From a virus: a stretch of 64,000 bases of DNA. The stretch lies in IMG/VR virus record IMGVR_UViG_3300037070_003613, positions 1 through 64,000 of that record. One strand, given 5' to 3'. Below are positions 1,740 through 54,975 of the stretch, piece by piece. The notes beneath the pieces are model-generated. The model made no database searches and was not told the DNA's origin. It saw nothing but the letters and a program-made list of their open reading frames with translations. The translations under genes and the position numbers were made by a program. The stretch's first letter is position 1; the number at the start of each line of letters is the position of its first letter.

Positions 1740-2432
1740 ATGCAAGCAGCGGTCCTCGAACGTGTCCTCGACTGGCGACCATTCCACGACGAACGGTCAC
1801 TCGATCATCCAGTCCGGGACCGGCTCCCGGACCACTGTCGCCGCCGCCTGCGAATGTGGCAGGCCGGACGCCAACTCGACCAAGGGTTCCACAGTGGCAG
1901 CGTCGGCTACGGCTGGACGACAGAGTTGCAAGCGGAACCATCGACGTTCAACAGCACCCTCCCCGCCGAGCACTTCGCGACGCACCTGTACCGCCAGGCG
2001 CAACAGGTCGATGACTTCCCCGGCGAGTCGTACCTCGGCACGAGCGTGCTCGCCGCCGCCAAGGCGCTGCACTCGGGCGGGTACATCGCGTCGTACTCGT
2101 GGGCGTTCACCATTGACGACGTGATCGACGCCGTGGTCGAGATCGGCCCGGTCGTGATCGGCATCCCGTGGTTCGAGTCGATGTCGACCACCTCCACATC
2201 GGGCATGGTCGAGGTCAACGGCCGCATCGTCGGCGGGCACTGCGTCACCATCACCGGCTACGACCCGCAGCTACAACTCCCCGACCGGATAATGCCCGAC
2301 GAGGCGCTCCGCTGGCGGAACTCGTGGGGCGACAGCTACGGCGACCAAGGCGACGGCTACATCCGCGCCGAAGACCTCGAACACCTCCTGTGGGGCCGCT
2401 ACGGCAGCGAGGCGTGCGTACCGATCGGTTGA
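1740..2432 (+). CDS. Papain-like (C1 family) protein with Ser at the Cys position
   Basis: 230 aa. ATG at 1740 was chosen because GGAAGGG lies nine bases upstream. The C-terminal half has peptidase C1 hallmarks: GGHCVTITGYD with the catalytic His at 167, and RWRNSWGDSYGDQGDGYI with Asn at 194. The segment that should hold the nucleophile reads DQGFHSGSVGYGW. The usual phage form is, as I recall it, QG-x2-GACVGFG, so the Cys is Ser54 here. The remaining fold motifs (YLGTSVLAAAKAL, GPVVIGIPW) are intact. It is therefore either an inactive binding protein or a Ser variant. Papain-like fold: confident. Activity: doubtful. Confidence 0.8.
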   Translation: MQAAVLERVLDWRPFHDERSLDHPVRDRLPDHCRRRLRMWQAGRQLDQGFHSGSVGYGWTTELQAEPSTFNSTLPAEHFATHLYRQAQQVDDFPGESYLGTSVLAAAKALHSGGYIASYSWAFTIDDVIDAVVEIGPVVIGIPWFESMSTTSTSGMVEVNGRIVGGHCVTITGYDPQLQLPDRIMPDEALRWRNSWGDSYGDQGDGYIRAEDLEHLLWGRYGSEACVPIG

Positions 2433-3243: not shown

Positions 3244-3273
3244 TTGACGAACTCTGGACAGGGGCGGTATACT
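3244..3273 (+). promoter_or_regulatory. Promoter
   Basis: TTGACG (3244-3249), 18-bp spacer, TATACT (3268-3273), 45 bases before the MerR-like gene. This unit has a real leader, unlike the METTT genes. Confidence 0.75.
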
Positions 3274-3317: not shown

Positions 3318-3692
3318 ATGACCGACGTGACGACGTGGCAGGAGGTCGAGCCGCGACTCAAGAGGCTGACGTACCGTCAGATCGACTACTGGATCCGCAC
3401 GAACGCCATCGACCTCGAAGGCCCGGCGCAAGGCTCCGGGTCGAAGCGCACGTTCTCCGACGAGGACGTGTGGCGCTTGGAGATCATCGAGCGGCTGGTC
3501 GACCTGCCATCGCTGCCATCGGGCATCCCGGGCGAACTGATCCGACTGATCTGGAACTACCTCGAAGGACGCCACCGTTCGCGTGCCACCGACACGCACA
3601 TCTTCATCACCGGCAACCCGCGCGAGGGCTGGAAGGTGAGCACCAAGTTCGACCCGGCGCTCGACTCGGCCGTCGTGCTGCGCATCCGGTGA
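3318..3692 (+). CDS. MerR-like helix-turn-helix protein
   Basis: 124 aa. The N-terminal 60 residues (RLTYRQIDYWIRTNAID, then KRTFSDEDVWRLEIIERL) match the MerR/excisionase winged-helix layout: an HTH, then an arginine-phenylalanine strand, then a second helix. The C-terminal half has no ligand-binding domain that I recognise. It is the first gene of its unit and overlaps the next by GTGA, so it may regulate it or nearby promoters. DNA-binding fold is likely; target unknown. Confidence 0.7.
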   Translation: MTDVTTWQEVEPRLKRLTYRQIDYWIRTNAIDLEGPAQGSGSKRTFSDEDVWRLEIIERLVDLPSLPSGIPGELIRLIWNYLEGRHRSRATDTHIFITGNPREGWKVSTKFDPALDSAVVLRIR

Positions 3693-3970: not shown

Positions 3971-4051
3971 GTGTGCCCGGTGCGTAGGTGACGGTTACTT
4001 CTCCCTTTACATGGAAACCAAGCTCCGTTGCCGTCTGGTTCTCGGGCACAC
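3971..4051 (+). ncRNA. Y-RNA-like element 1
   Basis: Closing stem GTGTGCCC (3971-3978) with GGGCACAC (4044-4051), 8 bp perfect. Inside it lie the conserved 23-nt block starting GGTGCGTAGGTGA and ending GGTTACTTC (3979-4001), and GGTTCTC just before the 3' strand. This is the shortest member and has no T-arm. The same block recurs in five more copies downstream. Confidence 0.7.
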
Positions 4052-4060
4052 TGCACCATC

Positions 4061-4218
4061 GTTTCCGGCTGGTGCGCAGATGAGGGTTCCTTCGCATATG
4101 GAGCGGGTAGTCACAGGTTCGAGTCCTGTTCACGCCACCAGGCCCGCAAGGGTCGGTGTGATAGCTCAGTTGGCAGAGCGCCAAACAGTCCCCTTGTTGA
4201 TCGGTTCTCAGCCGGAAC
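4061..4218 (+). ncRNA. Y-RNA-like element 2 with permuted tRNA module
   Basis: Closing stem TTCCGGCT/AGCCGGAA (4063-4070, 4210-4217). After the conserved block (4071-4093) come, in order: a T-arm (ACAGG, TTCGAGT, CCTGT; 4113-4129), a 3' acceptor strand TCACGCC with ACCA (4130-4140), a GCAA-capped hairpin (4141-4154), a 5' acceptor strand GGTGTGA (4155-4161), and a D-arm (GCTC, loop AGTTGGCA, GAGC; 4164-4179). This is a complete tRNA upper half in circularly permuted order. The anticodon arm is replaced by the closing stem, as described for bacterial YrlA RNAs. GGTTCTC at 4203-4209. Confidence 0.75.
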
Positions 4219-4224
4219 ACACCC

Positions 4225-4342
4225 TTTCCGGGTGGTGCGCTGATGATGGCTACTTCGCAAGTTCGATTCTTGTCATCCCCACCACATGGGGATGTGGGCA
4301 TGGCGCCCGCACTGCCTTCGCCGCCTGGTTCTCACCCGGAAA
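4225..4342 (+). ncRNA. Y-RNA-like element 3 with permuted tRNA module
   Basis: Closing stem TTTCCGGGT/ACCCGGAAA, 9 bp (4225-4233, 4334-4342). Conserved block 4234-4256. T-arm GCAAG-TTCGATT-CTTGT (4257-4273). 3' acceptor CATCCCC plus ACCA (4274-4284), a three-base turn, then 5' acceptor GGGGATG (4288-4294; perfect 7-bp acceptor), and a D-like hairpin (4296-4308). GGTTCTC at 4327-4333. Confidence 0.75.
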
Positions 4343-4349
4343 CGATCTC

Positions 4350-4449
4350 TCTGGTCGGTGCGCAGATGGGAGTTACTTCAACGGATGAAACGGCTTCGGC
4401 CGTCGTGGCTCGAAACCACAAGCCTCCCGCCGCCAGGTTCTCGACCAGA
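4350..4449 (+). ncRNA. Y-RNA-like element 4
   Basis: Closing stem TCTGGTC/GACCAGA (4350-4356, 4443-4449). Conserved block 4357-4379 and GGTTCTC 4436-4442. The interior holds a TTCG-capped hairpin (ACGGC/GCCGT, 4390-4403) and a T-arm-like hairpin GTGG-CTCGAAA-CCAC (4405-4419). Confidence 0.7.
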
Positions 4450-4458
4450 AAACTCGAC

Positions 4459-4579
4459 CCTGCCCGGTGCGCAGATGACGGATACTTCCTTCACACATGC
4501 AGAAGGTCCCCGGAGCGGCGGTAACCAATCCGTGCCAGCTTGGGAACCAGTCCCCGTTGTCGCTCGGTTCTCGGGCAGG
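4459..4579 (+). ncRNA. Y-RNA-like element 5
   Basis: Closing stem CCTGCCC/GGGCAGG (4459-4465, 4573-4579). Conserved block 4466-4488 and GGTTCTC 4566-4572. The interior of about 75 nt is not obviously tRNA-like. Confidence 0.65.
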
Positions 4580-4590
4580 ACTTCCGCATC

Positions 4591-4683
4591 TGCGGTGCGA
4601 TGACAGAGGTTCCTTCTCACCAGGGCGCAAGCCCACGAATGCCGGAACGAGAGACCGGCGCCCTCCGTCGCCTGGTTCTCGCA
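4591..4683 (+). ncRNA. Y-RNA-like element 6, weak closing stem
   Basis: Conserved block 4594-4616 (two bases deleted, two inserted) and GGTTCTC 4674-4680. The flanking arms pair only as TGC/GCA, so the copy may be degenerate or end differently. It lies 55 bases before the TROVE gene. Confidence 0.5.
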
Positions 4684-4737
4684 ACCAACCAATGACCCCA
4701 ACGACCCAATGACCCAACCCTGAAAGGGGCAACGACC

Positions 4738-6351
4738 ATGAGCAAGTTCGCTCAAACCGCCACGACCGCCCGCCCGCAGGGGCCGCTGCACACCCTCCCC
4801 GGTGTTCAGACGCGCACCCACGAGGGCGGTCTCGGCTTCGTCAAGGACGCCCGCACCGAACTGTTCTCGCTCGGCGTCGCGAACTTCGTCGCCGAAGACA
4901 CGTACTACGAGAAGGCCGGTGTCCGCGACAAGCGGTTCACGGATCTCGTGCGCGAGGTCACGGCACTCGACCCGGACTGGGTCGCGCACTTCATTCCGTG
5001 GCTCCGCCAGGAAGCGAACATGCGCACCGCTTCGGTGGTCGCCGCCATCGAGTACGCCCGCGCCGCTCCCGGCACGAACGGCCGCGCAGTGATCGCGCAG
5101 ACGCTCACGCGCGCCGACGAACCAGCCGAGGCGCTCGCCTACTGGATGTCGCTCTACGGCCGCAAGATCCCCAAGGCCGTCAAGCGCGGCATCGCCGACG
5201 CCGTCGTCAAGCTGTACACGCAGAACGCCGCCATGAAGTACGACTCGCGCGACGCCAAGATGCGGATGGGTGACGTGATCGACCTCGTCCACCCCAACCC
5301 GCACGACGCGCTCCGCTACTGGGAGCAGGACGACATGGGCATGTCGGACAGCGACGTGGAACTCCTCAAGGACCGCGTCGTGGAGCGCAAGCGCGCCCTG
5401 TTCCAGTACCTCCTCGACAAGCGCCACGGCCGCGACAACCCGCGCGGCCTCGACCGGCTCGGCAAGATCTCGGCCCGCAAGGACGCGATCAAGGCCGCGG
5501 CCGAGGGCGGCGAGTTGGACGTGACGACGGGCATGACGTGGGAGACCGCGTTGTCGCTCGGCGGCTCGAACGCGGAGACGTGGCAGAAGGTCATCCCGCA
5601 GATGGGCTACATGGCTCTGCTGCGCAACCTGCGCAACTTCGAGGACGCCAAGCTGCCCGCCAACGTCCTCATGCAGGTCGCGTCGACGCTGGCCGACCCC
5701 GAGCAGGTCGCCAAGTCGCGCCAGTTCCCGTTCCGGTTCCTGTCGGCGTGGTCGGCGTCCGGCTCGATGATGTGGGGTCAGGCGCTCGAACTCGCGCTCG
5801 AAGCGTCGTGCGCCAACATCCCCGAGTTCCCGGGCAAGACGCTGATCATGGTCGACGTGTCGGGTTCGATGGACGGCAAGATGTCGGCCAAGTCGACGGT
5901 GTCGCGCAAGGTCGCCGGTGCCGTATTCGGCGCGGCCGTGATGAAGCGGTCGGCTCCCGGCTCGAAGCTCGGCGTGTACGCCACGCTGTGCGCCGTGCAG
6001 GACAAGCCACGCTCGGTCCTGCGCACCGCCGAGGAGATCGGCAAGCTGTCGGGCGTCGGCGGTCACGGCACGAACACGTGGCCATCGACGTGGATGCTGT
6101 GGCAGGAGTACGGCCCATTCGACCGGATCCTCATCTTCACCGACGAGCAGCACCACCCATCGCACATCACGGCCGGTTCGTTCCCCAAGGACGTCCCGAT
6201 CTACGTGTGGTGCCTGGGCGGCTACCGTCCGGCGTCGCTCGACCTCGGCACGGGCCGCTACCTGCTCGCCGGTCTCAACGACCAGTGCTTCAAGCTGATC
6301 AAGATCCTCGAAGCCGGGTCCGAGGGACGCTGGCCGTGGGAGGTCGACTGA
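4738..6351 (+). CDS. TROVE-domain protein (Ro60/RSR-like)
   Basis: 537 aa, close to the usual length of bacterial Ro60 orthologues. The N-terminal two thirds follow the TROVE layout of paired helices; examples are TYYEKAGVRDKRF, LVREVTALDPDW and IPWLRQEANMRTASVV. The C-terminal third is a vWA-like domain with MIDAS motif DVSGS (Asp373, Ser375, Ser377). Known family role: a ring-shaped RNA-binding protein that holds misfolded RNA and is gated by Y RNAs, acting in RNA quality control and decay. The six structured RNAs just upstream are the natural partners. ATG at 4738 follows GAAAGGGGC. No RtcB ligase gene is next to it. Identification is firm from motifs; its role in the phage is inference. 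Confidence 0.9.
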   Translation: MSKFAQTATTARPQGPLHTLPGVQTRTHEGGLGFVKDARTELFSLGVANFVAEDTYYEKAGVRDKRFTDLVREVTALDPDWVAHFIPWLRQEANMRTASVVAAIEYARAAPGTNGRAVIAQTLTRADEPAEALAYWMSLYGRKIPKAVKRGIADAVVKLYTQNAAMKYDSRDAKMRMGDVIDLVHPNPHDALRYWEQDDMGMSDSDVELLKDRVVERKRALFQYLLDKRHGRDNPRGLDRLGKISARKDAIKAAAEGGELDVTTGMTWETALSLGGSNAETWQKVIPQMGYMALLRNLRNFEDAKLPANVLMQVASTLADPEQVAKSRQFPFRFLSAWSASGSMMWGQALELALEASCANIPEFPGKTLIMVDVSGSMDGKMSAKSTVSRKVAGAVFGAAVMKRSAPGSKLGVYATLCAVQDKPRSVLRTAEEIGKLSGVGGHGTNTWPSTWMLWQEYGPFDRILIFTDEQHHPSHITAGSFPKDVPIYVWCLGGYRPASLDLGTGRYLLAGLNDQCFKLIKILEAGSEGRWPWEVD

Positions 6352-6940: not shown

Positions 6941-6970
6941 ATCAACATCGTAACACGGGTGTCAAGTCTG

Positions 6971-7000
6971 TTGACAAACCGTGGACGATCTGCGCATAAT
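6971..7000 (+). promoter_or_regulatory. Promoter
   Basis: TTGACA (6971-6976), 18-bp spacer beginning AACCGTGGAC, CATAAT (6995-7000). ATG at 7011. Confidence 0.85.
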
Positions 7001-7010
7001 GATGGTGGAC

Positions 7011-7863: not shown

Positions 7864-7900
7864 GCGACCATGCTACAGCCGTAGGTGCTGGTCAACTCTG

Positions 7901-7930
7901 TTGACAAACCGTGGACATTCTGCGCATAAT
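7901..7930 (+). promoter_or_regulatory. Promoter with 5' leader hairpin
   Basis: TTGACA (7901-7906), 18-bp spacer beginning AACCGTGGAC, CATAAT (7925-7930). The transcript would start with a hairpin GAGGGA-AGG-TCCCTC (7939-7953). Confidence 0.85.
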
Positions 7931-7969
7931 AATGGTGTGAGGGAAGGTCCCTCCGCTGAAAGGATCCGG

Positions 7970-22086: not shown

Positions 22087-25000
22087 GTGGCCACCGCCAC
22101 GTTCGCCAATCCGTGGCATGACGAAATAGGTCGCTTCGCGCCCAAGGGAACCGGCACGAAGTTCGGCGCGACGCAGGACGAGATGCGGTCTCTGTTCGAG
22201 CCGGTGCGTCCGCTCGTGGACGTCCTCGAAGGCGCCGGTGCGAAGACCTACCTCGTGGGCGGCTCGGTCCGTGACCGGCTGCTCGGCATCGACGCCAAGG
22301 ACATTGACATCGAAGTCCACGGGCTGACCCCCGACGAGACCATCGCACTGTTGAAGGAACGGGGCGCCCGCGTCGATGAGGTCGGCAAGGCGTTCGGCGT
22401 GTTGAAGGTGACATTCGACGGCGAGACCCACGACTTCTCGTTCCCCCGCACCGAGGTCAAGACCGGCGAAGGCCACACCGGCTTCGATGTCACCGTCGAC
22501 CCGAACCTCGGCATCGAGCAGGCGCTCGCCCGCCGCGACTTCACCATGAACGCGCTCGCCGTCGACTCCGACGGCAACATGGTCGACCCGTTCGGCGGGG
22601 TCGCTGACCTCAAGGCCGGTGTGCTGCGCCACGTCGGCCCGGCGTTCTCAGAGGATCCGCTCCGCATCCTGCGCGGCGTCCAGTTCGCCGCCCGCCTCGG
22701 CCTCAAGTTCGACCCGGAGACCGCCAAGCTCGCCCACGACCTGCTGCCCGAGTTGGAGAACATCTCGACGGAACGCGTGTGGGGCGAGTTCGAGAAGCTC
22801 GGCGGTAAGGGCGTCTCGATGGAGGCCGGTGTCCAGGCACTCAAGGACGTCGGTCTCGACACCCGCTACGGCAACGTCCACTTCGACGGCGAACCGAACC
22901 TGACCGGTCTCACCGGCGACCATCGCGCCGCCGTCGCGCTCACCGCGATCGGCGTCGACCCCCGCCAGATCGGAGCGCCGAACACCGTCTCCCGCACCAT
23001 GCGCGACGTCAGCCAGGCGCTCGCGTTCACCGGCGACCAGGCCGCATCCCGGACCGCGGCCCGCGAGTTGAAGTACGGCACGTTCGAGGACGCCGCCCGG
23101 ATCGCAGGCCCAAACGACAACGTCGACCCACGTGTCCTCACCGGCCCACTCCCCGGACTCGTGACCGGCAACGACGTGATGGCCCGCGGTGTGCGCGGCT
23201 CAGCGATCGGCGAGGTCCTGCGCGCCGTGCAACAGGCCCAGGACAACGAGACCATCGTGACCCGCGAGGACGCGCTCGCCTGGCTCGACAAGCACGCCAC
23301 CGCCGCTATCCGCCGCTCCGCCGCGTTCGTGAATCCGTGGCACGACGAGGTCGGACGGTTCGCCCCGAAGGGAACGGGACGCCGGTTCGAGCCGCGCGGC
23401 GGCGCCGACGCCCAAGCACAGGCGCTCGCAGAAGCGATGGCGACACGAGCCGAGTTGAACGGCGGGTTCACATTCGACCCGCGCGGCAACCTGTTCATCA
23501 AACCCGATCCGTCGCTGCCCCGCGAGGAACATCGCGGCGCTGTCGCCGTGCCCGGCCATTCGGCGATCATCACGATGGAAGCCTTCCAGGACCCGACACG
23601 TGGCAAACAGTTCATCCGCGACTACCTCGACCAGCACGCCGAAACCATCGCCTCGCAACCGGACATCTTCATCGGCGGCTGGCACGACCGAGCGCACGGC
23701 GAGGTCGTGCTCGACCTGTCGCAGGTGCGCCCCCTCGATGAGGCGATCAAACTCGGGATCGAACGCGGCGAACAAGCGATCTTCGATCTCGACAGCGAGG
23801 AAGACGTCCCAACTCACGGGACAGGCGGACGCGAGAACGTCAAGATAGTTGACGCATCGGGTCAGGGTTTGGTACGATTCAGTCATGGCAGATACCGCGG
23901 ACCACCGCCAGCAGGCGCCGGACGTAACGGTACGTCCGGGCGACCTGGAAGGCTGGGCGGACAAGTCCGAGGAGGAGAAGCAGGCGATCGTGGACGCCAT
24001 GTACGAGGGTCTGAGTTCGCCAACCCCTGGCACGACGAGATAGGCCAGTTCGCGCCGAAAGGAACCGGCTCGACCGGGAAGGGCCGCTCCTCGAAGGCGG
24101 AGGAGGCCGCAGCGGCGAAGCTCGCCCGGGCGAAGGCCCGCAAGGTCCCGAAGCCGACCGAGGACGACGTGATCCAAGGCCAGGTCGACGCCCTCCTCGC
24201 GCGTGAGGGTTTGGTGCGCGCCGGTGGCGATCGGCGTGGCAACAACACGGCCCGGAAGAAGCGCGCCAAGGCGCTCGCCGCCGAGTTCGGCGACGGCACG
24301 ACCTGCGCCTGCCCGGACTGCGGGCAGCGCATCGCGGCCGACGCGGCAACCGCCGAGAAGCTCGGCATCGACGCGCTCACGCAGGACAAGATCCTGGTGG
24401 GCACGTTGGGTGGCTCCTACAAGATGGAGAACCTGATCCCGACCTGCCCGCCATGCAACCAGTCGCGCGGCGACCGGGAGGGCATCGGTGTCGTCGGCGA
24501 CGTGCGCCAGACGTGGGGATCAGCGGAACGGTTCACGCGGACGGTGGTGCGTCAGCACGGCGACGCCATCGCTCAACGCTTCCAGGAGCGCCGGTCGGCG
24601 ATCATGAAGCGCAAGGGGATCACGTGGGAGGAGCACATCGCCGAGAACCCGGACGCGCTCCCGCAGGACTTCGATCGGCTACGCCGCCCGGTCGGCGGGA
24701 ACTTCGCCGTCGACGGCTGGACCCCCGGGGAGATCGTCACCGACTGGCTCGATCGTGTCGCCGTCAACGGCCACGCCGTCGACCATGAACTTCGTGTAGA
24801 CGATCCCGTTCGAGTCGACTTCCCAGGTGAGCAACTCACCCTCGACCCCTGGGTCACCGACGATCGGGTTGTCGAGGTCATCGGGGGTGTCCCACCCGAA
24901 CCGCTTGGCTCGCACGATCGTGCCGTCCTCAACCACAGACCGCAGCGTAGCGAGTTCGGCAACCCGTGGCATGACGAGATCGGTCAGTTCGCGCCGAAGG

Positions 25001-27336
25001 GCACGGGCACCAACTTCGCCAACATCGCCCGTCGCGCGGACGAAGCGGAAGCGGCCGGATCGCAGATCTCAGAACTCGACCTTGAGCAGGCCGCACTGCT
25101 CGATGACCGGCTGCGCGAGTTCGGGAAGGCGATGGGCAGCGACTTCCAGAACGACGACGGCGTCAGGCTGACCCATCACGCACTCGACCAGCGGCATGGG
25201 CGTGGGACGATGAACGGACTCGCCGCCACCAACCCGGATGGCGTGGTGCTGGGCGCGATCGCCTACAACAAGAACCCCGGCGACTACCACATCGAGTTCC
25301 TCGGCTCGACCGGTCTCGTCAAGGGCGTCGGTTCGCAGTTGGTGATCCCCGTGATGGAACGGGCCGCAGCCGATGGGGCAAAGGTGACACTCAAGGTCGC
25401 CGGGACAAAGAGCGCCGCCTCGTTCTGGGAGTCGCTCGGCTTCGAGCGGGACTGGGAGAGCGCCACCGGCGCCACCATGCAGCCCGCCGACGTGCAGGCA
25501 TGGGTGGCGAATCTCAACCGCGAACGCGAGGGTGTCTTGGTCGGCGCAGGCGCAGCACCAGAAGGATGGGATCCCGACGACGACCGCTGGGCTGCCCACG
25601 CGATCGAACTCGGGCTGATGTCCATTGTCGCCTCCGCGGCGCAGTTCATGAACCCGTGGCACGACGAGGTGGGTCGGTTCGCGCCGAAGGGGACCGGGCG
25701 CAAGTTCGGTAAGCACGTCTCGTGGCATGTCGGCTCAAACGGCTACGAGGTGATGCACAACGGGAAATGGGTCCGGACGCCGGAAGCCATCAAGCACTAC
25801 GGCGCGCTCGAAGTAGCGCAGCACATGTCGCCGCTCGAAGCCCGTCAACTCCGTGAGGAGTTGGAAGGCCAGACGATGATCGACCTTCTCAATGACACGG
25901 ACGTTCAGTACAAGGCAACGGCATCGCTGGCGGTCCTGACTCACGACCCGAACTTGCACGGCAAGGAAGGTTTCGAGCATCTTCAACGTCAAGTCACCTT
26001 CGCCAAAGAGGCCGACCTCGGGCTGGTGATGCAGTTGTACGCCGCAGAGCAGTTCGCCTCATGGGAACACTCCGGGGTCGACATCGCCCTGTTGAAGGAA
26101 GCCACGCAGGCGCACATGCGCGGTGAGATTGACGCCGCCTCACTGTCACGGATGATCACCGAGCAGTACGGGATCACGGTCGAATCGGGCGCCGTTGGCT
26201 GGTTCAACCGGGCCTGGCAGATCTCCGCCGTCTCCCACGAATCAACTGCGATGCAGATCCAGATCGCCGAGCAACGCGGTCTAAGCGCAGCCGATGCGGC
26301 GATGCGCGACTACGTCGGCGACTCGACGCTGGACAAAGCCAACGATCTGACGTGGTCGATGGGAGCGACGATCAACGCCGTGACGTCGGCTCACATCCGC
26401 AACACTGAGGAGAAGCTGACCCAGGCCCCGGAACTGGCGTTGCCGACGATCCACCGAGGCTTGAAGGGTGAACAGTTCACCAGCATCCAGGCCGGTGACA
26501 CGGTCCAGTCGAACCCCTTGTCGTCGTGGTCGTTCGACCCGAACCAGGCCGAGCACTTCGCCACCAACTTCATCGACACACAAGGGATCGTGATCACCAC
26601 CGAGTTCAACCCGGCCAACGTGCTCACCATCAGCGACATCAGCGGCATGGGATCACTGGACGAGCGAGAAGTGATCATGATCGGCGAACCGGTCAAGGTC
26701 ACCCGCGCTCGTCTTCCAACGAAGCCCAGCGGTTGGGCAGTGATCCCGGAGAACGTGTACCTGATTGACACCCCGGAGAACGTCGACTGGATCACCCGCG
26801 AACCCGACGAAGCTCTGACGGCATCGGCGGCCAAGTTCGCGAATCCGTGGCATGACGAGATCGGACGTTTCGCGCCGAAGGGTCAGGGCAGCACGTCCGG
26901 CGGGCTGGACAACGAGGAGGCTGACGCCGAGTTCGAGGAGAAGTACGGCAACGAACGCCGATCCGGCGACGGCGACTGCTTCGAGGTCGGTTTGCACTTC
27001 ATCCACTCCATCCCTCGCGGCGAGGAGGACCGCTACAAGCTGTGTCACGGCGTGCCCGAGGGCCAAGGCCCGATCGAAGGCGTCCGCTTCGATCACTGCT
27101 GGATCGAACGAACCGACCCGCTCCCCGAGACCATGACCCCCGAGCAGCGGGCGATGTTCGAGCAGTACGAGATGAACATCACCGTGATCGACAAGTCGAA
27201 CGGCAACGATGTCGAGATGCCCCGACTGCTGTACTACCAGTTGGGCAGCATCAATCCTCGCGACGTCCGCCGCTACACACCAGACGAAGCCCGCCGCGAG
27301 GCCGTCCGAACCGGGGTTTACGGGCCGTGGACATAG
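22087..27336 (+). CDS. Giant multi-module head-associated protein 1
   Basis: 1749 aa from GTG, six bases after the portal stop. Six copies of NPWHDEIGRFAPKGTG (residues 8, 416, 646, 959, 1189, 1586) each head a module. 1: class II CCA-adding enzyme (GGSVRD 58-63, DIDIE 72-76, RRDFTMNAL 149, EDPLRILR 189). 2: unknown phage domain ending FDLDSEEDVPTHGTGG. 3: HNH nuclease with CPDC and CPPC (740-790). 4: GNAT-like (LGSTGLVKGVGSQL, FWESLGFE). 5: helical region plus ADP-ribosyltransferase (HRG about 1456, SSWS 1479, ERE about 1526). 6: small Cys/His domain (GDCFEVGLHF, FDHCWIE, VIDKSNG), possibly a cysteine hydrolase. About 23880-24020 and 24700-24960 read poorly in this frame (see findings). Resembles polyvalent and MuF-toxin proteins of other phages. 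Confidence 0.75.
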   Translation: MATATFANPWHDEIGRFAPKGTGTKFGATQDEMRSLFEPVRPLVDVLEGAGAKTYLVGGSVRDRLLGIDAKDIDIEVHGLTPDETIALLKERGARVDEVGKAFGVLKVTFDGETHDFSFPRTEVKTGEGHTGFDVTVDPNLGIEQALARRDFTMNALAVDSDGNMVDPFGGVADLKAGVLRHVGPAFSEDPLRILRGVQFAARLGLKFDPETAKLAHDLLPELENISTERVWGEFEKLGGKGVSMEAGVQALKDVGLDTRYGNVHFDGEPNLTGLTGDHRAAVALTAIGVDPRQIGAPNTVSRTMRDVSQALAFTGDQAASRTAARELKYGTFEDAARIAGPNDNVDPRVLTGPLPGLVTGNDVMARGVRGSAIGEVLRAVQQAQDNETIVTREDALAWLDKHATAAIRRSAAFVNPWHDEVGRFAPKGTGRRFEPRGGADAQAQALAEAMATRAELNGGFTFDPRGNLFIKPDPSLPREEHRGAVAVPGHSAIITMEAFQDPTRGKQFIRDYLDQHAETIASQPDIFIGGWHDRAHGEVVLDLSQVRPLDEAIKLGIERGEQAIFDLDSEEDVPTHGTGGRENVKIVDASGQGLVRFSHGRYRGPPPAGAGRNGTSGRPGRLGGQVRGGEAGDRGRHVRGSEFANPWHDEIGQFAPKGTGSTGKGRSSKAEEAAAAKLARAKARKVPKPTEDDVIQGQVDALLAREGLVRAGGDRRGNNTARKKRAKALAAEFGDGTTCACPDCGQRIAADAATAEKLGIDALTQDKILVGTLGGSYKMENLIPTCPPCNQSRGDREGIGVVGDVRQTWGSAERFTRTVVRQHGDAIAQRFQERRSAIMKRKGITWEEHIAENPDALPQDFDRLRRPVGGNFAVDGWTPGEIVTDWLDRVAVNGHAVDHELRVDDPVRVDFPGEQLTLDPWVTDDRVVEVIGGVPPEPLGSHDRAVLNHRPQRSEFGNPWHDEIGQFAPKGTGTNFANIARRADEAEAAGSQISELDLEQAALLDDRLREFGKAMGSDFQNDDGVRLTHHALDQRHGRGTMNGLAATNPDGVVLGAIAYNKNPGDYHIEFLGSTGLVKGVGSQLVIPVMERAAADGAKVTLKVAGTKSAASFWESLGFERDWESATGATMQPADVQAWVANLNREREGVLVGAGAAPEGWDPDDDRWAAHAIELGLMSIVASAAQFMNPWHDEVGRFAPKGTGRKFGKHVSWHVGSNGYEVMHNGKWVRTPEAIKHYGALEVAQHMSPLEARQLREELEGQTMIDLLNDTDVQYKATASLAVLTHDPNLHGKEGFEHLQRQVTFAKEADLGLVMQLYAAEQFASWEHSGVDIALLKEATQAHMRGEIDAASLSRMITEQYGITVESGAVGWFNRAWQISAVSHESTAMQIQIAEQRGLSAADAAMRDYVGDSTLDKANDLTWSMGATINAVTSAHIRNTEEKLTQAPELALPTIHRGLKGEQFTSIQAGDTVQSNPLSSWSFDPNQAEHFATNFIDTQGIVITTEFNPANVLTISDISGMGSLDEREVIMIGEPVKVTRARLPTKPSGWAVIPENVYLIDTPENVDWITREPDEALTASAAKFANPWHDEIGRFAPKGQGSTSGGLDNEEADAEFEEKYGNERRSGDGDCFEVGLHFIHSIPRGEEDRYKLCHGVPEGQGPIEGVRFDHCWIERTDPLPETMTPEQRAMFEQYEMNITVIDKSNGNDVEMPRLLYYQLGSINPRDVRRYTPDEARREAVRTGVYGPWT
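23849..23878 (+). promoter_or_regulatory. Internal promoter inside giant ORF 1
   Basis: TTGACG (23849-23854), 18-bp spacer, TACGAT (23873-23878), with an ATG six bases further on: the same leaderless design as elsewhere in the window. Confidence 0.6.
23885..24043 (+). CDS. Small gene nested out of frame in giant ORF 1
   Basis: 52 aa (MADTADHRQQAPDVTVRPGD at the start, EEEKQAIVDAMYEGL later). Codon third positions favour this frame over the giant ORF's frame, which here reads as Gly/Arg-rich text. It sits exactly behind a leaderless-type promoter. It ends inside the next NPWHDE repeat. Either it is a separate overlapping gene or, after a frame change, the N-terminus of the HNH module. Unknown function. 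Confidence 0.5.
   Translation: MADTADHRQQAPDVTVRPGDLEGWADKSEEEKQAIVDAMYEGLSSPTPGTTR
24679..24972 (-). CDS. Candidate antisense ORF in giant ORF 1
   Basis: 97 codons on the minus strand, opposite the poorly coding end of the HNH module. The text is protein-like (DGTIVRAKRFGWDTPDDLDN, then LLTWEVDSNGIVYTKFMVDG) and its third positions are more G/C-rich than the plus frame. The start may be a GTG near residue 13. It could be a real gene that was overrun by the long ORF. Low certainty. Confidence 0.35.
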   Translation of the reverse strand: MPRVAELATLRSVVEDGTIVRAKRFGWDTPDDLDNPIVGDPGVEGELLTWEVDSNGIVYTKFMVDGVAVDGDTIEPVGDDLPGGPAVDGEVPADRAA

Positions 27337-44642: not shown

Positions 44643-44696
44643 GACATCAACGTAGTTCTGGCCTGCTCCACCATCGAGGAATACCTGTGAAATGTG

Positions 44697-44726
44697 TTGA
44701 CAAACCCTGGACGTTCTGCGCATAAT
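44697..44726 (+). promoter_or_regulatory. Promoter of the first RNA cluster
   Basis: TTGACA (44697-44702), 18-bp spacer beginning AACCCTGGAC, CATAAT (44721-44726). The transcript would begin near 44733 with a hairpin GGAGAAG/CTTCTCC (44737-44762). Confidence 0.85.
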
Positions 44727-44770
44727 ACTGGTGGAAGGAGAAGGGAGTTGGGGTTCTTCTCCTCCGAGAG

Positions 44771-54821: not shown

Positions 54822-54898
54822 GGGGGCGTATGTCTCAGCGGCAGAGCTTCTGGTTTACACCCAGCCGGTCGGGGGTTCGAGTCCCTCCGCCCCCACCA
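54822..54898 (+). tRNA. tRNA-Val(TAC)
   Basis: Acceptor GGGGGCG/CGCCCCC, anticodon loop TTTACAC, T-loop TTCGAGT, ACCA encoded. Confidence 0.9.
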
Positions 54899-54899
54899 T

Positions 54900-54975
54900 G
54901 CGGTCGTAGCTCAATGGATAGAGCAGGAGCGTTCTAATCTTCGTGCTGGGGGTTCGAGTCCCTCCGACCGCACCA
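54900..54975 (+). tRNA. tRNA-Arg(TCT)
   Basis: Acceptor GCGGTCG/CGACCGC, anticodon loop GTTCTAA on GGAGC/TCTTC (weak), T-loop TTCGAGT, ACCA encoded. The last A is the first base of the next gene's ATG. Confidence 0.85.

What the first reader, a model, noticed from the sequence alone, without database searches (positions are those of the whole stretch)
3971..4683. Six tandem Y-RNA-like RNAs, two with circularly permuted tRNA modules, beside a TROVE gene
Each unit has its own closing stem; five are perfect or nearly so and all differ in sequence, i.e. they covary. Each has an identical-length 5' block (GGTGCGCAGATGA then GGTTACTTC) and GGTTCTC before the 3' arm. Units 2 and 3 contain T-arm, 3' acceptor with CCA, a cap, 5' acceptor and D-arm in permuted order, exactly how tRNA mimicry is built in bacterial YrlA RNAs. 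One Y RNA per Ro60 gene is the usual case. An array of six different ones, some with tRNA mimicry and some without, would be unusual. Different units could gate Ro60 for different RNA partners.
Basis: partly seen in the sequence, partly recalled or inferred. Interest (0 to 1): 0.88.

Follow-up and report, generated by a model that had tools for sequence, protein, structure and literature searches.

The report
Phage Y RNA array beside Ro60
A bacterial virus carries, just ahead of its gene for the RNA-binding ring protein Ro60, six different small Y RNAs in a row, two of which contain a rearranged copy of a transfer-RNA; the array is real, but related actinobacteria and their viruses usually carry two to eight such RNAs, so it is a rich example of a known kind rather than something unique.

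Summary
Window 3971-4688 contains six tandem stem-closed RNA units, 49 nt upstream of a complete Ro60 (TROVE) gene in a 147-kb actinophage-like genome. A covariance model built from 37 short units (36 from other genomes) finds five of the six at E 1e-15 to 5e-6 and nothing else in the genome. A model of the permuted tRNA module, built without this window, finds unit 2 as its best match (59 bits) and unit 3 more weakly (26.6 bits). Closing and upper stems covary strongly across related viruses (0 of 500 shuffles).

All nine annotated TROVE-bearing actinophages examined, 66 of 79 IMG/VR TROVE contigs and 76 of 80 actinobacterial TROVE loci carry such units, usually 2-4 and up to about 8 per locus, with tRNA-like and plain units normally mixed. 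One Ro60 with several different Y RNAs is therefore the rule in this lineage.

Best reading: polycistronic Y RNAs that share one Ro60-binding core and carry interchangeable effector domains (plain loop, permuted tRNA, double hairpin) for the phage's own Ro60. Ro60 binding, processing and function are inferred. Rfam's YrlA model misses these RNAs at its threshold.

The parts
3971..4051 (+). Y RNA unit 1, short class, plain apical loop, 81 nt
   Evidence: R1 68.4 bits, E 1e-15 (in the training set); closing stem 10/10, upper stem 8/8
4063..4217 (+). Y RNA unit 2, permuted-tRNA class, 155 nt
   Evidence: closing stem 10/10, upper stem 8/8; its module is found by R2
4113..4179 (+). permuted tRNA module of unit 2: T arm 4113-4129, 3' acceptor 4130-4136, ACCA 4137-4140, 5-bp hairpin with GCAA loop 4141-4154, 5' acceptor 4155-4161, D arm 4162-4179
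   Evidence: R2 59 bits, E 8e-14, best match in the window; Rfam YrlA partial match 32.3 bits, below its threshold of 69
4226..4341 (+). Y RNA unit 3, reduced permuted-tRNA class, 116 nt
   Evidence: R1 41.6 bits, E 1.1e-8; closing stem 10/10
4257..4310 (+). permuted mini-tRNA module of unit 3: T arm 4257-4273, 3' acceptor 4274-4280, cap ACCACAT 4281-4287, 5' acceptor 4288-4294, D-like hairpin 4295-4310
   Evidence: R2 26.6 bits; 83% identical over 54 nt to an unannotated place in Streptomyces phage Francob; weak permuted-tmRNA resemblance
4349..4450 (+). Y RNA unit 4, double-hairpin class (UUCG hairpin plus T-arm-like hairpin), 102 nt
   Evidence: R1 43.7 bits, E 2.9e-9; closing stem 9/10
4458..4580 (+). 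Y RNA unit 5, multi-hairpin class, 123 nt
   Evidence: R1 54.2 bits, E 5e-12; closing stem 9/10, upper stem 8/8
4586..4688 (+). Y RNA unit 6, double-hairpin class, weak closing stem, 103 nt
   Evidence: R1 31.3 bits, E 5.3e-6; closing stem only 5/10; effector part 76% identical over 67 nt to L070 3706-3772
4738..6351 (+). Ro60 (TROVE + vWA) protein gene, 537 aa, with MIDAS-like residues D373, S375, S377, T445, D469
   Evidence: PF05731 69.5 bits against a cut-off of 23; AlphaFold model pLDDT 90; Foldseek matches to Ro60 structures 9kop, 9l5y, 1yvp, 2i91, 2nvo
3244..3273 (+). candidate phage promoter upstream of the likely operon (MerR-like ORF 3318-3692, array, TROVE)
   Evidence: resembles the repeated phage element TTGACAAACCGTGGACNNTCTGCGCATAAT; function not shown

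Best explanation
This is a polycistronic array of six bacterial-type Y RNAs that serve the phage's own Ro60 protein. All six share one Ro60-docking core: a closing stem of up to 10 bp, an internal loop (UGCGNN opposite GNNNGGUUC), an upper stem of about 8 bp, and a UUACUUC-type strand. Above the core they carry three kinds of effector domain: a plain loop (unit 1), a circularly permuted tRNA elbow-plus-acceptor (units 2 and 3), and two or more hairpins (units 4-6). Proposed working: the array and TROVE are co-transcribed, the precursor is cut in the short spacers, each RNA occupies the Ro60 ring, and the effector domain decides which RNA-processing enzyme or RNA the particle meets (for the tRNA-like ones, tRNA-binding enzymes or PNPase). 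Shown by computation: array, structures, covariation, permuted modules, complete Ro60 fold, recurrence. Inferred: co-transcription, processing, Ro60 binding, partner choice and benefit to the phage.
For: Covariation of closing and upper stems in 37 short units: 83% of cells paired against 61.5% shuffled, covariation score 0.571 against 0.179, 0/500. Units picked by sequence motif only: own closing stem pairs at least 8/10 in 147 of 173 against about 18% for cross-locus partners. Permuted modules: acceptor pairs at least 6/7 in 146 of 181 against about 10% cross; module alignment 99% paired. Window units found by models trained mostly or wholly on other genomes. The 3' core motif is more alike within a locus than between loci (0.86 against 0.74, 0/300 label shuffles) while the 5' closing arm is not, as expected if all units of one array are read by the same protein. 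Ro60 fold. Array recurs beside TROVE. No terminator-like site between array and TROVE.
Against: No RNA-seq and no binding data. Unit 6 has a poor closing stem and may be degenerate. Units 4-6 have effector domains with almost no detectable homologues (only unit 6 matches L070), so their structures rest on single-sequence folding. The array is identical in the one closely related contig found, so the window's own units show no covariation among close relatives. RtcB, RNA_ligase PF09414 and the AAA_33 kinase family were not found in the 147-kb record, so the RNA-repair context of Salmonella is absent.
Confidence: 0.82

Rival explanations
1. The tRNA-like Y RNAs are decoys that absorb host tRNA-attacking defences or compete for tRNA-binding enzymes; Ro60 only stabilises them.
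For: Elbow features (T loop UUCRANU, D loop GG) and a paired acceptor are kept in units 2 and 3; many TROVE phages carry large tRNA arrays and the window has 32 tRNAs. Hughes et al. (PMC7790460) suggest competitive inhibition of an anticodon nuclease as one possible role for YrlA, while noting that YrlA is not a substrate of it.
Against: The modules lack an anticodon arm; four of six units have no tRNA module; the Ro60 core is conserved in all units.
Confidence: 0.2
2. The array is a set of cis-acting leader structures that controls TROVE expression rather than separate trans-acting RNAs.
For: The array directly precedes TROVE; many bacterial and IMG/VR loci also have a hairpin 0-10 nt before the TROVE start codon.
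Against: Each unit is closed by its own stem and is followed by a spacer; the window has no such leader hairpin; homologous Y RNAs are known as separate RNAs bound to Ro60 (PMC8394870, PMC4726728); unit number varies between loci.
Confidence: 0.07
3. The units are decaying tRNA or tmRNA gene fragments.
For: R2 also matches junctions of tandem tRNA genes (e.g. 54871-54924, 49.7 bits); unit 3 weakly resembles permuted tmRNA.
Against: Strong covariation and a shared Y core in all units; the same architecture recurs in hundreds of units.
Confidence: 0.02

Closest known systems
Bacterial Y RNAs with tRNA-like domain (YrlA; Rfam RF02553; Chen et al. 2014 RNA 20:1715, not held, recalled from its abstract; summarised in PMC8394870)
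   Same: Encoded next to Ro60; long closing stem that carries the Ro60 site; permuted T arm - acceptor - D arm without anticodon arm. From memory, the 2014 paper already reports Y RNAs in more than 250 bacterial and phage species with at least one tRNA-like Y RNA in each.
   Different: Best score here is 32.3 bits against the Rfam threshold of 69; actinobacterial core motif (UGCGNN...UUACUUC...GGUUC/UUGAUC); six units, four without a tRNA module; encoded ACCA and an 18-nt cap in unit 2.
Salmonella rsr-yrlBA-rtcBA operon (PMC7790460)
   Same: One Ro60 with more than one Y RNA in the same operon.
   Different: Two Y RNAs with RtcB/RtcA there; six here with no RtcB found in the 147-kb record.
Deinococcus radiodurans Rsr / Y RNA / PNPase complex (RYPER; PMC7790460, PMC4726728)
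   Same: Ro60 ring plus Y RNA; likely functional model.
   Different: No test of PNPase binding here; phage-borne; several Y RNAs.
Ro60 of Thermus phage phiLo (PDB 9l5y, title)
   Same: Phage-encoded Ro60; fold match to our model.
   Different: No R1-type unit found around the phiLo gene.
Circularly permuted tRNA and permuted tmRNA (Rfam RF04321)
   Same: T arm - acceptor - intervening segment - acceptor order, with CCA in the window modules.
   Different: Embedded in a Y RNA; only 18.8-21.1 bits against a threshold of 47 for unit 3.

Membership tests
Bacterial Y RNA (broad sense) | encoded next to a Ro60/TROVE gene | tested here: met
   TROVE starts 49 nt after unit 6; same in relatives
Bacterial Y RNA (broad sense) | 5' and 3' ends pair in a long closing stem with a conserved internal loop | tested here: met
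   weak for unit 6
Bacterial Y RNA (broad sense) | bound by the adjacent Ro60 | not testable with these tools
   only indirect: within-locus similarity of the 3' core
Bacterial Y RNA (broad sense) | expressed as a stable small RNA | not testable with these tools
   no RNA data
YrlA-type tRNA-like Y RNA | permuted T arm - acceptor - D arm domain without anticodon arm | tested here: met
   unit 2 clear, unit 3 with non-canonical D arm; not found in units 1, 5 and 6, and only a T-arm-like hairpin in unit 4, so these four are not filed as YrlA-type
Rfam RF02553 YrlA | score at or above the gathering threshold (69 bits) | tested here: not met
   32.3 bits in the window; none over threshold in the related TROVE loci scanned
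Ro60 / TROVE protein | TROVE HEAT ring plus vWA domain with MIDAS | tested here: met
   PF05731 over cut-off, fold matches to Ro60 structures, MIDAS residues invariant or nearly so in A3
RYPER (Ro60-Y RNA-PNPase) | Y RNA tethers Ro60 to PNPase | not testable with these tools
   no binding data
permuted tmRNA (RF04321) | score at or above the gathering threshold (47 bits) | tested here: not met
   21.1 and 18.8 bits over unit 3

The most novel reading that the evidence does not exclude
One phage Ro60 is served by a set of interchangeable RNA adapters: the same core carries a plain loop, a full permuted tRNA, a mini-tRNA and three private hairpin domains, so that the phage can direct one ring protein to several host RNA enzymes. 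In units 2 and 3 the encoded ACCA sits at an internal acceptor end that tRNA-processing enzymes could open, giving a Y RNA with a tRNA-type CCA 3' end.
Probability: 0.12. Interest if true: 0.82.

Novelty: new member of a known kind. Interest (0 to 1): 0.5.

Why it matters
Bacterial Y RNAs have been studied in only a few species. Here a single operon offers six natural variants on one Ro60 core, and the survey shows that mixed arrays are the rule in actinobacteria and their viruses while Rfam's YrlA model misses them. That makes the open question of what the variable Y RNA domains do directly testable by deleting or swapping units in one culturable phage with such an array.

Tried and rejected
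1) That the array is unique: rejected by relatives. 2) That unit 2's module is copied from one of the phage's own tRNAs: best match 36 of 49 positions, within the range of matches between different tRNAs of this phage, so no sign of a recent copy. 3) That the encoded ACCA is general: only 8 of 146 modules (window included) have CCA there, so it is a feature of this array, possibly chance. 4) Permuted tmRNA for unit 3: below threshold. 5) RNA-repair operon context: RtcB, RNA_ligase PF09414 and AAA_33 kinase not found. 6) A conserved CAACUU spacer element: seen in part of the loci only (43 of 162) and absent between the window's units. 7) TROVE leader hairpin as a shared control element: not in the window. 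8) Folding each unit freely gives a z-score below -2 only for units 1 and 3, so single-sequence energies alone would not have proved the array; covariation does. 9) A full-length alignment of tRNA-type units (A4) had one misplaced row and ragged 3' ends, so it was not used. 10) Chen et al. 2014 and a Y RNA review could not be read, so their content is from memory or from citing papers.

Full report
What is there. The window is the first 64 kb of a 147,492-base virus record. Its portal protein matches mostly actinobacterial phages and it carries 32 tRNA genes. At 4738-6351 lies a 537-aa TROVE protein. An AlphaFold model from 31 viral homologues has mean pLDDT 90, and its Foldseek matches in the PDB are Ro60 proteins: 9kop, 9l5y (Ro60 of Thermus phage phiLo), animal Ro60 structures and Deinococcus Rsr. 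Residues D373, S375, S377, T445 and D469 of the vWA MIDAS are invariant in the alignment. It is a complete Ro60.

The array. Between 3971 and 4688 there are six stem-closed units with 5-11-nt spacers. Each has the same plan: closing stem ending in GG/UC, a 5' internal-loop strand UGCGNN, an upper stem of about 8 bp, a UUACUUC-type strand, a variable domain, the upper-stem partner, and a 9-nt 3' strand GNNNGGUUC. Units 1-5 have closing stems of 9-10 of 10 pairs, each better than with any other unit; unit 6 has 5 of 10.

Is it more than chance. Single-sequence folding is only convincing for units 1 and 3. The decisive evidence is comparative. TROVE homologues were collected from annotated phages (regions), IMG/VR and bacterial genomes. 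In 37 short units the named structure has 83% of cells paired against 61.5% in shuffles, 16 of 18 pairs with changes on both sides, and a covariation score of 0.571 against 0.179, with no shuffle of 500 reaching it; sliding the partners by one column collapses the signal. RNAalifold found the same two helices without being told. When units are chosen by sequence motif alone, 147 of 173 closing stems pair at 8 or more of 10 positions, against about 18% for partners taken from other loci. A model built from the short units finds window units 1, 5, 4, 3 and 6 at E from 1e-15 to 5e-6 (only unit 1 was in the training set) and nothing else in the genome.

The permuted tRNA modules. In unit 2 the order is T arm, 3' acceptor, ACCA, a 5-bp hairpin with a GCAA loop, 5' acceptor, D arm, with no anticodon arm. 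Across relatives the two acceptor strands of such modules pair at 6 or 7 of 7 positions in 146 of 181 cases, against about 10% for mixed partners. In 32 chosen modules 99% of cells pair and all 7 acceptor pairs change on both sides (this set had been filtered for acceptor pairing, so one search is the fair test). A model of these modules, without window sequence, gives unit 2 as its best match in the window at 59 bits and unit 3 at 26.6 bits. Unit 3's module is 83% identical over 54 nt to an unannotated stretch in Streptomyces phage Francob, in what looks like a divergent array between tRNA genes. The same model also fires on junctions between tandem tRNA genes of this phage (e.g. 54871-54924), which are by geometry T arm - acceptor - spacer - acceptor - D arm; a tandem tRNA pair is therefore a plausible source of such a permuted module (inference).

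How unusual. All nine annotated TROVE-bearing actinophages examined have units upstream of the gene, two to five each (read; the strict motif scan misses some of them). By a simple motif scan 66 of 79 IMG/VR loci and 76 of 80 actinobacterial loci have at least one unit, and most have two to four; L086 has about eight, L024 seven, L022 and L049 six. Of loci with two or more units, 55 of 60 (IMG/VR) and 50 of 71 (bacteria) mix plain and tRNA-like units by simple patterns. These counts are rough and mostly lower bounds, and some IMG/VR contigs are stretches of bacterial genomes (L025 and L101 appear to be the same contig). What remains somewhat special here is that three of six units carry hairpin domains without a tRNA module: only 33 of 391 collected units are long and lack a T loop. 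Both tRNA-like units also encode ACCA.

How it probably works. The 3' core is more similar within a locus than between loci (0.86 against 0.74, 0 of 300 label shuffles), while the 5' closing arm is not. This fits one protein reading all units of an array. In Deinococcus the Y RNA tethers Ro60 to PNPase and gates its substrates, and YrlA is modified by tRNA enzymes (PMC7790460, PMC4726728, PMC8394870). By analogy the phage makes several particles with one Ro60 and different effector domains. Co-transcription is likely (no terminator-like site between array and gene; a promoter-like element resembling a repeated phage promoter at 3244-3273) but unproven. Rtc-type repair genes were not found in the record.

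Filing. In the broad sense these are bacterial Y RNAs. They are not filed under Rfam RF02553, whose threshold they miss (32.3 against 69 bits), as do the related TROVE loci scanned. Chen et al. 2014, which from memory already reports Y RNAs near Ro60 in more than 250 bacterial and phage species with at least one tRNA-like Y RNA each, could not be read here, so how many of these arrays are already on record is uncertain.

Verdict. Real, well supported, and an instructive large example of a known kind; the claim of singularity is not supported.

Noticed in passing
L018, L025, L029, L099, L108 and others, just upstream of the TROVE start codon: In many IMG/VR and bacterial TROVE loci a G+C-rich hairpin with an SD-like 3' arm ends 0-10 nt before the start codon; it might sequester the ribosome site or act as a terminator. 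Not present in the window.
   Followed up: partly
window 6970-7005, 7900-7935, 44696-44731; variants at 3244 and 9237: A repeated promoter-like element TTGACAAACCGTGGACNNTCTGCGCATAAT precedes several genes; none expected by chance.
   Followed up: partly
window 22087-27336: A 1749-aa open frame has a tRNA nucleotidyltransferase-like region (residues 52-257) and an HNH endonuclease-like region, in a phage with 32 tRNA genes.
   Followed up: no
L022 3680-3856: Rfam manA RNA (RF01745, 57.4 bits, over threshold) sits inside a Y RNA array between two units.
   Followed up: no
L186 1193-1560 (Streptomyces phage Francob): An unannotated, divergent Y-RNA-like array with permuted tRNA modules between tRNA genes; not found by model R1; one module resembles window unit 3.
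   Followed up: partly
window 54871-54924 and other tRNA-tRNA junctions: The permuted-module model matches junctions between adjacent tRNA genes, suggesting how permuted modules could arise from tandem tRNAs.
   Followed up: no
L009 3688-3882 (Gordonia phage Rabbitrun): A 195-nt unit seems to hold two T-arm-like hairpins before its D arm.
   Followed up: no
window 1740-2432: A papain-like C1 peptidase open frame lies upstream in the same region.
   Followed up: no
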